Shown: positions 14,697 to 16,891 of the stretch, one piece after another
Numbering within the stretch: position 1 is the stretch's first letter
How the letters are laid out: each line of letters starts with the position of its first letter
From: Chitinophagaceae bacterium
GTDB taxonomy: Bacteria; Bacteroidota; Bacteroidia; Chitinophagales; Chitinophagaceae
Reading direction: 5' to 3'
DNA length: 64,000 nucleotides
Assembly (NCBI GenBank): GCA_947447465.1
Contig: CANFKE010000005.1
Span: forward strand, 62,001-126,000
Translations under genes and position numbers: made by a program
Notes under the pieces: generated by a model
Databases searched by the model: none
Told to the model about the DNA's origin: nothing
What the model saw: the letters and a program-made list of their open reading frames with translations, nothing else

Positions 14697-15317
14697 ATGG
14701 AATTCGCAAAGATCAAGAACAAGGGGCAGGCGAGGCTATTTCAGAACGACCTGCTGGAGCTGATGACCAAGACACATCCGCTCATCGTTTACACGATGTA
14801 TTTCCCGGTAATAGCGTTGATGTTGTACTATGGCGCGCACACGCGGGGTTTATCCATAGGGCAAGAAGCATTGATATTCACCGCAGGTATTTTCTTTTGG
14901 ACCTTATTCGAATATATCATGCATCGTTATCTGTTCCACATTGTAGCAGAGAGTGTAAGGGCCAAAAGGATCATCTATACCATGCATGGCGTGCATCATG
15001 AATATCCCCGTGATAAGGACCGACTTTTTATGCCCCCGGTGCCGAGTGTGATACTGGCGGTGATCATATATTATTTCATGTATGCCTTTATGGGGTGGTA
15101 CGCGTTAGCTTTCTTTCCCGGCTTTTTATTTGGCTATATTTTATACGGGTCTATGCACTACGCCATACATGCCTTTGCCCCACCCAAATACCTCAAAGCA
15201 CTATGGCGCAATCATCATCTGCATCACTACAAGCAACCCGATAAAGGATTTGGAGTAAGTTCAGTGATTTGGGATGTGGTGTTCGGTACTGTTCCTAAGA
15301 AAGAGGATGTGAGTTGA
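14697..15317 (+). CDS. fatty acid hydroxylase-type di-iron membrane protein
   Basis: A 206-residue membrane protein with the full His-box set of the fatty acid hydroxylase/sterol desaturase family: H76-xxxx-H81, H97-GVHH101, H154-xxx-H158 and H173-HLHH177, set between four hydrophobic segments (about 28-47, 55-75, 117-136, 138-158). Boxes such as EYIMHRYLFH and HGVHHEYP most resemble fatty acid 2-hydroxylases, which in Bacteroidota could modify sphingolipid acyl chains (inference). Its last 10 codons lie in the left copy of the 39-bp direct repeat that flanks the RAYT insertion, so the gene remains intact and ends at TGA 15315-15317. Confidence 0.88.
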   Translation: MEFAKIKNKGQARLFQNDLLELMTKTHPLIVYTMYFPVIALMLYYGAHTRGLSIGQEALIFTAGIFFWTLFEYIMHRYLFHIVAESVRAKRIIYTMHGVHHEYPRDKDRLFMPPVPSVILAVIIYYFMYAFMGWYALAFFPGFLFGYILYGSMHYAIHAFAPPKYLKALWRNHHLHHYKQPDKGFGVSSVIWDVVFGTVPKKEDVS

Positions 15318-15326
15318 TCAAGCTGC
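15288..15326 (+). repeat. 39-bp direct repeat, left copy
   Basis: Identical over 39 bases to 16031-16069. It contains the end of the fatty acid hydroxylase gene, the stop TGA at 15315-15317 and the following TCA. It acts as the left flank of the RAYT insertion. Confidence 0.95.
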
Positions 15327-15340
15327 ATTTGTGATGTTAT

Positions 15341-15393
15341 ACTGGTCGAAGCGTCTCGCTTCGTCCTGCCAAGTGCAAGCGTCCCGCTTGCGA
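15341..15393 (+). repeat. left terminal inverted repeat with two REP-like palindromes
   Basis: Contains gaagcgtctcgcttc (15348-15362) and caagcgtcccgcttg (15376-15390). The whole 53 bases match the reverse complement of 15973-16025 at 46 positions; five of the seven mismatches cluster in the spacer between the palindromes. Confidence 0.9.
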
Positions 15394-15399
15394 GTATGG

Positions 15400-15951
15400 T
15401 CAAATAGACATTACAAGGTCAATTAGTCCTTGCGTACCACCACTGTAATCGTATGCGCTACTCCATTTCCAATGTGCGGGGTCAATTACAAATCCTGCTT
15501 TTACAGGATTGTTATGAATGTAGTTAACTCTCTGTATCATCATTTCAGATCGCGACATTTCTATAGGATGATTGTCTTGTTGCCACAATTGAAAGTCATT
15601 GTTGTTAGTATTATTGTAGCCCGCTTTTTTGAGCATGGTCATAATCCATTCTTTTCTGCTTTCATAAATACAGTTTTCTAACTCTAGTCTTATGTGTCGG
15701 GATGTATAGCTTTTCAGGTCACGAATAATATCTTCCAATTTATTACCGTTGGTCCCTATTATCATGTGCACATGATTGGTCATAATGACCCATGAACTGA
15801 CAAGGAGCCCCTTATTTTTCTGGCAATATTTTACACTGTCAATAAATATTTGTCTGTAATTATCTCTGGTGAAAATGTCTATCCAATTCACTATGGTGAA
15901 TGTCACAAAATAGAAAGCTTGTTGATCGGTGATTTTATATTTTAGCGCCAT
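15400..15951 (-). CDS. REP-associated tyrosine transposase (RAYT, IS200/IS605-like)
   Basis: A 183-residue single-strand DNA transposase of the Y1 HUH family. The HUH motif is H60-V-H62 in SWVIMTNHVHMI, the likely catalytic tyrosine is Tyr82 in LKSYTSRHI, and the C-terminal YIHNNPVKAGFV followed by WKWSSAYDY is a hallmark of RAYTs. Such proteins nick and join at REP hairpins, and this gene is bracketed by REP-type palindromes at both ends. It is oriented against the fatty acid hydroxylase gene. All key residues are present, so it may be active. It begins at ATG 15951, just inside the right inverted repeat. Confidence 0.92.
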   Translation of the reverse strand: MALKYKITDQQAFYFVTFTIVNWIDIFTRDNYRQIFIDSVKYCQKNKGLLVSSWVIMTNHVHMIIGTNGNKLEDIIRDLKSYTSRHIRLELENCIYESRKEWIMTMLKKAGYNNTNNNDFQLWQQDNHPIEMSRSEMMIQRVNYIHNNPVKAGFVIDPAHWKWSSAYDYSGGTQGLIDLVMSI

Positions 15952-15972
15952 GAGCTAGGATTTTGGTTTATT

Positions 15973-16025
15973 TCGCAAGCGAGACGCTTGCATGGTTCGG
16001 GACGAAGCGAGACGCTTCGACCAGT
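15973..16025 (-). repeat. right terminal inverted repeat with two REP-like palindromes
   Basis: Reverse-complement partner of 15341-15393. Contains the palindromes gcaagcgagacgcttgc (about 15975-15991) and cgaagcgagacgcttcg (about 16003-16019). Confidence 0.9.
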
Positions 16026-16030
16026 AGTGG

Positions 16031-16069
16031 ACTGTTCCTAAGAAAGAGGATGTGAGTTGATCAAGCTGC
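16031..16069 (+). repeat. 39-bp direct repeat, right copy
   Basis: Identical to 15288-15326. It still encodes the tail of the fatty acid hydroxylase out of context, and on the minus strand it supplies the stop codon (16061-16063) of the next gene. Confidence 0.95.
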
Positions 16070-16669
16070 GTGTTTATGATGGGTCTCGTTTGACAGGTAG
16101 TCGTGTATTTGTTGCTGCGTCAATTTGTGGTCTATATCGGCTATCACTTTGCGCGCGTCATCAACAAATCTTCGATCTTCTGCAGGCAGGCAATACTGGA
16201 ACAGATTGTATTCCAGCCATTTAGCATTTACATACCTGCCATTGAATTTGATGGTCGTTTTGTCGGTAAGGTTGGCAAAACTGCTTTTGCCTAACAGGTG
16301 TCCATACTGTTCAAAATCTCGTTGGGTAACGGCAGGTCTTTGTGGCGCTGCTGCGGTTGTTGGCTGAGTAGCACTTGGTACATAGTCGCTGGTAGTAGGC
16401 ATAGAAAATACTTCATCTACAACTTTTTCCCATGACTTCAGCGCTGCCGCTACTTCAGGCTCCTGTGTATTTTCTTTACGAGGTCTTGCAGGTTGTTTGG
16501 TAAGCCTCAGCAGGCAGGTGATCAATTTATGTTGCAGATTGGTTTCCTGTGGAGTGGGGAATCTTTGCCCCTCCGCACGGGCTTCAATAGATCGCTGAAA
16601 TGCCAGTATCTGATCGCATAGTTTTTGAGCAATAGTGGTGATGATATCGGGATTCAATAGTGCTGTCAT
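16061..16669 (-). CDS. hypothetical protein
   Basis: A 202-residue cytoplasmic protein without a recognisable domain. The N-terminal 75 residues are helical (DIITTIAQKLCDQILAFQRS), a Pro/Thr/Ala-rich linker covers about 95-120, and the C-terminal 85 residues include FNGRYVNAKWLEYNLFQYCL. The ATG at 16669 (MTALLNPD) is preferred; a longer frame to 16750 adds an unlikely Trp/Cys-rich extension. Its stop codon lies inside the right copy of the 39-bp repeat: before the RAYT insertion its stop directly abutted that of the fatty acid hydroxylase in the palindrome TGATCA. Confidence 0.65.
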   Translation of the reverse strand: MTALLNPDIITTIAQKLCDQILAFQRSIEARAEGQRFPTPQETNLQHKLITCLLRLTKQPARPRKENTQEPEVAAALKSWEKVVDEVFSMPTTSDYVPSATQPTTAAAPQRPAVTQRDFEQYGHLLGKSSFANLTDKTTIKFNGRYVNAKWLEYNLFQYCLPAEDRRFVDDARKVIADIDHKLTQQQIHDYLSNETHHKHAA

Positions 16670-16835
16670 GATAAGAGTTATTTGTGCCGTAAAATTAATT
16701 ACGACCTCACCACATAGCCAAAAAATGTGGATATCTTTTCGGAAACGCAAGCCTGTAGCGGAAAGTATTTTTTTGTGGTGATCATGTTTTCATCAGCCGA
16801 TGATATCTGAATGAATAGGATCGGAGTATCCATAC

Positions 16836-16867
16836 AAAAAGATGACCCGCACTTTTCCGTGCGGGTC
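16836..16867 (-). terminator. rho-independent terminator
   Basis: Stem gacccgcac (16844-16852) with gtgcgggtc (16859-16867). On the minus strand it is followed by tctttttg. It lies 25 bp after the stop of the next minus-strand gene. Confidence 0.85.
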
Positions 16868-16891
16868 GTCTCTATGAATGATGTCACTTAT

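What the first reader, a model, noticed from the sequence alone, without database searches (positions are those of the whole stretch)
15288..16069. RAYT element flanked by an exact 39-bp direct duplication
Seen: 39 identical bases at 15288-15326 and 16031-16069 bracket a 704-bp segment with one RAYT gene. Known: HUH Y1 transposases of the IS200/IS605/RAYT group insert without target-site duplication, and RAYTs are usually regarded as domesticated, single-copy and immobile. A long exact duplication around a RAYT implies recent movement by an unexpected route, such as staggered double-strand entry, template switching or replication-linked repair. This could be a mobile RAYT unit with its own rules.
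Basis: partly seen in the sequence, partly recalled or inferred. Interest (0 to 1): 0.72.

Follow-up and report, generated by a model that had tools for sequence, protein, structure and literature searches.

The report
RAYT insertions with long flanking duplications
A small bacterial gene long thought to be settled and immobile, bounded by hairpin repeats, appears to have jumped between two genes and copied a stretch of its landing site on both sides, and some relatives show the same kind of long, variable footprint.

Summary
39 identical bases (15288-15326, 16031-16069) bracket a REP-RAYT-REP unit. Both copies contain the abutting stops of two convergent genes, so each gene keeps its own 3' end.

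It recurs. Of 140 RAYT units with inverted REP arms, 13 have a strong direct repeat outside the arms, against 0 of 308 shifted placements. By eye, 5 of the 13 are duplicated target (39-134 bp), 7 are REP-made repeats, and 1 does not abut; a sixth case scores lower. A same-genus relative of one case has both genes contiguous with a single copy of its 91 bp. Lone REPs show duplications of 35 and 188 bp in this genome, and 37 bp in a relative against an element-free site.

Not universal. Most RAYT units and REPs show none, one filled/empty pair lacks it, and the 87%-identical RAYT at this same junction in a sister species lacks it.

Best reading: Bacteroidota (subclass 2.6) RAYT/REP units are mobile and can insert by a route that copies about 35-190 bp of target twice, unlike IS200/IS605. 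The pattern and two empty sites are shown; the fork-coupled mechanism is inferred.

The parts
14697..15317 (+). gene A: fatty acid hydroxylase family protein (206 aa); its last 30 bases, stop included, lie in the left copy of the duplication
   Evidence: ORF; Pfam PF04116, 1.6e-21; orthologues in 9 of 10 other same-genus genomes
15288..15326 (+). left copy of the 39-bp direct duplication (3' end of gene A plus 9 bases identical to the 3' end of gene B); possibly extends to 15336
15340..15393 (+). left REP arm (two hairpins)
   Evidence: inverted repeat I1; related copies elsewhere in the genome
15400..15951 (-). RAYT (REP-associated tyrosine transposase, 183 aa; NHVH, WQ and YIHNNP motifs)
   Evidence: NCBIfam NF047646 106 bits, cut-off 80; Pfam PF01797; alignment A1; profile match to solved TnpArep 4er8, 9.8e-08
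15973..16026 (+). right REP arm, inverted relative to the left arm
16031..16069 (+). right copy of the 39-bp direct duplication; contains the true 3' end of gene B; possibly extends to 16081
16061..16669 (-). gene B: convergent gene of unknown function (start codon chosen by me at 16669; one search lists the ORF to 16750 from a TTG)
   Evidence: ORF; no Pfam or NCBIfam match; beside gene A in G010 and G004 too

Best explanation
The segment is a mobile REP-RAYT-REP unit that inserted at the joined 3' ends of two convergent genes, and the act of insertion copied the target twice, so both genes kept intact ends. I think the RAYT, a single-strand-specific HUH nuclease, joins the unit to one strand at a replication fork or single-stranded gap. 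The second junction is then made by host replication or repair resuming upstream (template backtracking, or filling of a long 5' overhang), so roughly 35-190 nt of target are copied twice. Shown: long direct repeats at or near the REP ends at several independent loci, and two relatives with contiguous, single-copy target. Inferred: that the RAYT catalyses it, the fork, and the strand events.
For: Both 39-bp copies hold the A-stop/B-stop junction with no element inside, so the unit went into a site where A and B abutted. G090 has 89/91 identical bases 3 and 4 nt outside its REPs; same-genus G100 has both genes and a single target contiguous at 74% identity. Other RAYT units: G064 125/134, L255 76/82, G060 83/90 plus a further block, and the weaker Mucilaginibacter sp. 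L294 45/56. Lone REPs: own genome 34/35 at the uvrA 3' end and 183/188 at C19; G010 36/37 at the uvrA 3' end, where G004 has a single copy and no REP. Controls: 13 of 140 units score 35 or more, against 0 of 308 shifted placements. Lengths vary widely, as expected if a host process rather than enzyme geometry sets the second junction. The 39 bp are young: own and G010 agree at only 33 of 67 four-fold sites of gene A (49%).
Against: Only 6 of 140 units show it by my own sorting; one of the 6 (G060) is partly made of REP-like hairpins whose copy number I did not check, and one (L214) is diverged and lies 17 and 38 nt from the arms. Of 93 REP sites in three genomes I judge 3 to be target duplications. 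The two clear empty sites were looked at because a duplication was already known at that locus or gene. Of the two pairs not so chosen, L301/L358 has no duplication (though G004 has REP-bearing tandem copies next to it) and L277/L355 has only a 14/16 match that 8 of 274 mismatched pairs equal or exceed. The 87%-identical RAYT at the same A/B junction in G010 has none, and two independent insertions at one junction is an awkward coincidence. Polarity at G090/G100 rests on two genomes; the G099 locus has no gene A. Inserts carry 0-60 nt beyond the REPs.
Confidence: 0.58

Rival explanations
1. A REP or RAYT unit first inserted without duplication. Later a flank-plus-unit segment was tandemly duplicated and the second unit was lost, leaving flank-unit-flank.
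For: Tandem flank-REP arrays exist here (L280, L288, L315), and tandem REPIN clusters that include flanks are described in P. fluorescens (PMC3116915, passages seen). REP hairpins do get deleted: G004 carries what looks like a hairpin-deleted scar opposite L312.
Against: At the own, G090 and Mucilaginibacter L294 loci the unit would first have had to interrupt gene B and then be lost to the base to restore it. In G010 at the uvrA 3' end, the right copy runs straight into the flank seen in G004, with no scar.
Confidence: 0.17
2. The 39-bp repeat and some others are assembly artefacts or strain mixtures in metagenome-derived genomes.
Against: The other duplications have diverged copies (98%, 93%, 93%, 92%, 80%), which an assembler does not invent. 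One case (L214) is from a genome not labelled a MAG, Mucilaginibacter sp. L294. They occur in different genomes around REP arms.
Confidence: 0.08
3. The unit is old and shared with G010 at the A/B junction. In the own lineage an element-free allele later recombined with the filled allele, or the unit left and re-entered the same junction, making the duplication secondarily.
For: G010 has the orthologous RAYT between the same genes, and RAYT and gene A are about equally diverged between the two genomes (87% and 86% aa). G004 carries a REP-like remnant at that junction.
Against: It does not explain the duplications at unrelated loci, and it still needs an insertion that makes the duplication. 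The exact identity of the copies is far younger than the own/G010 split.
Confidence: 0.17

Closest known systems
RAYT / TnpA-REP (REPtron) of subclass 2.6, Bertels group 5
   Same: HUH and tyrosine motifs, REPs in inverted orientation on both sides, related REPs elsewhere in the genome, Bacteroidota relatives (table passages of PMC6006769).
   Different: RAYTs are described as single-copy, vertically inherited and not copying themselves (PMC8049555, passages), with no evidence of mobility (PMC8266576, passages). Here units look inserted, with long duplications.
IS200/IS605 insertion sequences
   Same: Y1 transposase superfamily (Pfam PF01797).
REPINs and tandem REPIN clusters of Pseudomonas
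   Same: Short non-autonomous hairpin elements thought to be moved by a RAYT; flank-plus-REPIN tandem arrays are known (PMC3116915 passages).
   Different: The clusters are described as tandem flank-REPIN units; single elements between two copies of unique target are not mentioned in the passages I saw.
Casposons
   Same: Also associated with unusually long target duplications (recalled; the only paper holding the phrase 'long target site duplications' with 'bacterial' and 'transposase' is on casposons, PMC9939771, seen as a listing only).
   Different: Unrelated enzyme (Cas1, recalled); not compared here. Lengths in the present cases are variable.

Membership tests
RAYT (REP-associated tyrosine transposase) | matches the curated family model | tested here: met
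   NF047646 REP_Tyr_transpos 106.2 bits, cut-off 80
RAYT (REP-associated tyrosine transposase) | HUH motif and single catalytic tyrosine | tested here: met
   H60, H62 and Y144 invariant in the 11 aligned sequences, this one included
RAYT (REP-associated tyrosine transposase) | inverted REPs on both sides, with related REPs elsewhere in the genome | tested here: met
RAYT (REP-associated tyrosine transposase) | immobile, vertically inherited | tested here: inconclusive
   own and G010 RAYTs are diverged as if vertical, yet the own copy has a young duplication and G090's unit is absent from the G100 site
TnpA-REP subclass 2.6 | NH[LIV]H, WQ and YIH[QN]NP motifs, Bacteroidota | tested here: met
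   NHVH, WQ, YIHNNP against the table passage of PMC6006769; four loci whose RAYT genes are identical to ones held from same-genus genomes are titled Chitinophagaceae bacterium or Flavipsychrobacter stenotrophus
IS200/IS605 | IS200/IS605 transposase model above cut-off | tested here: not met
   NF033573 27.8 bits, cut-off 55
IS200/IS605 | insertion without larger target duplication | tested here: not met
   39-bp duplication, and others
DDE transposon with a fixed target-site duplication | constant duplication length | tested here: not met
   34/35 to 183/188

The most novel reading that the evidence does not exclude
RAYT units and their REPs in Bacteroidota are living mobile elements that spread by a replication-fork-coupled single-strand insertion. 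Its second junction is set by host synthesis, leaving long, variable target duplications that let them land inside gene 3' ends, even between abutting convergent genes, without breaking them.
Probability: 0.4. Interest if true: 0.78.

Novelty: new variant of a known kind. Interest (0 to 1): 0.58.

Why it matters
[quoted passage not shown] Insertions caught with both junctions readable would give the missing footprint: they define element ends, suggest that RAYT genes themselves can move, and point to host replication as the second half of the reaction. The duplications would also explain how such elements can be tolerated in gene-dense genomes, because a landing inside a gene's end is repaired by the copy it makes. 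The prediction can be tested in culture with a catalytic mutant.

Tried and rejected
Considered and rejected: chance (controls); the 39-mer as a dispersed repeat (40 of 48 candidates scored, no other match to query bases 1-39); an RNA family in the window (Rfam gathering search, none). Seven of the 13 strong flank repeats (L069, L136, L104, L112, L245, L202, L242) were set aside because the repeat contains REP hairpins or is a tandem REP array. L096 (63/63) was set aside because it lies 73 and 120 nt from the arms. L058 (222 nt) reaches the end of the fetched stretch and was not counted. That sorting was by eye. L142 (17 nt), L272, L131 and L117 (14-15) and L049 (12 nt, seen by eye) were too weak to count. 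Of 93 REP sites, 13 scored 18 or more; I kept L274, L276 and L083 as target duplications and set aside L280, L288 and three L315 rows (tandem), and L319, L332, two L080 rows and L324 (older, not abutting, or made of other repeats). The mismatched control there is weak: 3 of 368 pairs also reach 18 (53, 26, 20), because loci share repeat arrays. L277 scores only 8 in that test (rank 37 of 93).

Led nowhere: a donor for the 60-nt extra sequence beside the G010 uvrA REP (only short partial matches outside the REP part); empty sites for the G064 case (no other genome held in its genus) and for own L083; the second batch of filled/empty pairs (L280 and L332 found a partner, neither clean). Filled/empty comparison of G010 and G004: of 40 G010 REP sites, at least 6 were shared with G004 by both flanks; I queried pieces from 6 of 12 chosen sites. 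Of these, L277 and L301 gave the comparisons described; L283, L312 and L316 did not face clean empty sites; L292 matched on one side only.

No structure prediction, fold search, PADLOC or PHROGs search was run.

Full report
What is there. The 39-base direct repeat is exact and lies where the finding says. Between the copies sits one RAYT gene on the minus strand (15400-15951) with inverted two-hairpin REPs at 15340-15393 and 15973-16026. The protein passes the curated RAYT model (106 bits, cut-off 80), has NHVH, WQ and YIHNNP motifs, matches the solved TnpArep 4er8 as a profile (9.8e-08), and fits the Bacteroidetes subclass 2.6 of PMC6006769 (table passage; section 25 read). The own genome has further REP matches at 20 fetched stretches and two distant RAYTs at 40% identity.

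Why an insertion with duplication is the simplest reading here. The left copy ends gene A (stop TGA 15315-15317) and is followed by nine bases that are the end of gene B. The right copy holds the same A end and the true end of gene B (stop TCA at 16061-16063). Neither copy has anything between the two stops. So the unit entered a site where the two convergent genes abutted, and the target was copied. With gaps allowed the repeat reaches 47/51 and comes within 3 and 4 nt of the REPs.

Is it a one-off? In the first set 87 of 92 had enough flank and 75 of those had inverted arms; in the second, 65 of 76 qualified. Of these 140 units, 13 have a direct repeat scoring 35 or more across the unit, against 0 of 308 placements of the same frame elsewhere in the same loci (best 12) and none above 13 in 414 mismatched pairs. 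Sorting by eye, five of the 13 are target-like and abut the arms: this locus; G090, 89/91; G064, 125/134; L255, 76/82; and G060, 83/90 plus a further block, partly REP-like. A sixth, weaker one is Mucilaginibacter sp. L294 (L214, score 23, 45/56 with gaps, 17 and 38 nt from the arms). In this locus, G090 and L214 the duplication spans the stops of two convergent genes; in G064 it holds about 120 coding bases of the neighbouring gene, as judged from the ORF tables. The G090 and G064 duplications matched only at those loci in their genomes (in G090 40 of 58 candidates were scored).

Empty sites. In G100, of the same genus as G090, the two genes and a single copy of the 91 bp are contiguous, aligned end to end at 74% identity. 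For lone REPs, G010 carries a REP at the 3' end of uvrA (label: on the own copy) between two copies of 36/37, while G004 has one copy running into the same downstream sequence. The own genome has a different REP duplication (34/35) at that gene and a REP pair between two copies of 183/188 elsewhere. These two empty sites were looked up because a duplication was already known at the locus or gene, so they do not measure frequency. Two pairs not chosen that way split: G010 L301 against G004 L358 shows an insertion with no duplication, beside REP-bearing tandem copies in G004; G010 L277 against G004 L355 shows a 14/16 repeat that 8 of 274 mismatched pairs equal or exceed. In the wider set of 93 REP sites I accept three.

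What speaks against a simple story. In G010 the 87%-identical RAYT lies between the same genes A and B with no duplication. G004 lacks the RAYT there, but its A/B spacer holds a remnant that resembles a hairpin-deleted REP, like the one seen opposite L312, so it is probably not a virgin site. Own and G010 differ strongly (gene A 77.5% DNA identity; 33 of 67 four-fold sites identical), so the exact 39 bp must be younger than their split. Either the junction was hit twice or the unit left and came back. I cannot decide between these.

Mechanism. Clear lengths run from about 35 to 188 bp with no shared target motif that I noticed (not tested). A transposase cutting both strands at a set spacing would give one length. 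I favour a RAYT joining the unit to one strand at a fork or gap, with host synthesis making the other junction further back. This is inference; no call tests strand, fork or catalysis.

Prior knowledge. The passages I saw say that larger target duplications are not made by IS200/IS605 (PMC2817692), that tnpA-REP mobility lacks evidence and the spreading mechanism is unknown (PMC8266576), and that RAYTs are single-copy, vertically inherited and do not copy themselves (PMC8049555). Tandem REPIN clusters including flanks are known in P. fluorescens (PMC3116915). PMC3733652 holds none of the terms duplicat, target site or direct repeat, and PMC3686654 discusses RAYT gene duplication and novel RAYT sites but not target duplications in the passages seen. 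Among the titles and abstract openings listed by searches I saw none reporting long duplications around RAYT or REP elements; the library holds only openly licensed papers, so this is not proof of absence. Bertels et al. 2017 was not read.

Noticed in passing
L083:1903-2395 (own genome C19, outside the window); query L083:2250-3000: The first ~90 bases of the query, inside the duplicated stretch, belong to a very abundant interspersed repeat with palindromic parts: about 40 matches each in G004 and G010 (40 candidates scored in each) and fewer in several other same-genus genomes.
   Followed up: no
L014 (A/B spacer) and L357 in G004: Scars that look like REPs with their hairpin stems deleted, leaving only the spacer and the CCAGT end, suggesting a recurrent way REPs are lost.
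   Followed up: partly
L078 (own) and L186/L274 (G010): The 3' end of uvrA carries a REP with a different target duplication in each of two species, as if some gene ends are hit repeatedly.
   Followed up: partly
L280:600-920 (G010): A gene end and a REP are tandemly duplicated (flank-REP-flank-REP), like the tandem REPIN clusters described in Pseudomonas.
   Followed up: partly
window 16831-16880: A 22-nt inverted repeat (82% complementary) with a 6-nt loop, possibly a transcription terminator.
   Followed up: no
L010 and L011 (own genome C43 and C54): Two further RAYTs only 40% identical to this one, with their own inverted arms and no long flanking duplication.
   Followed up: partly
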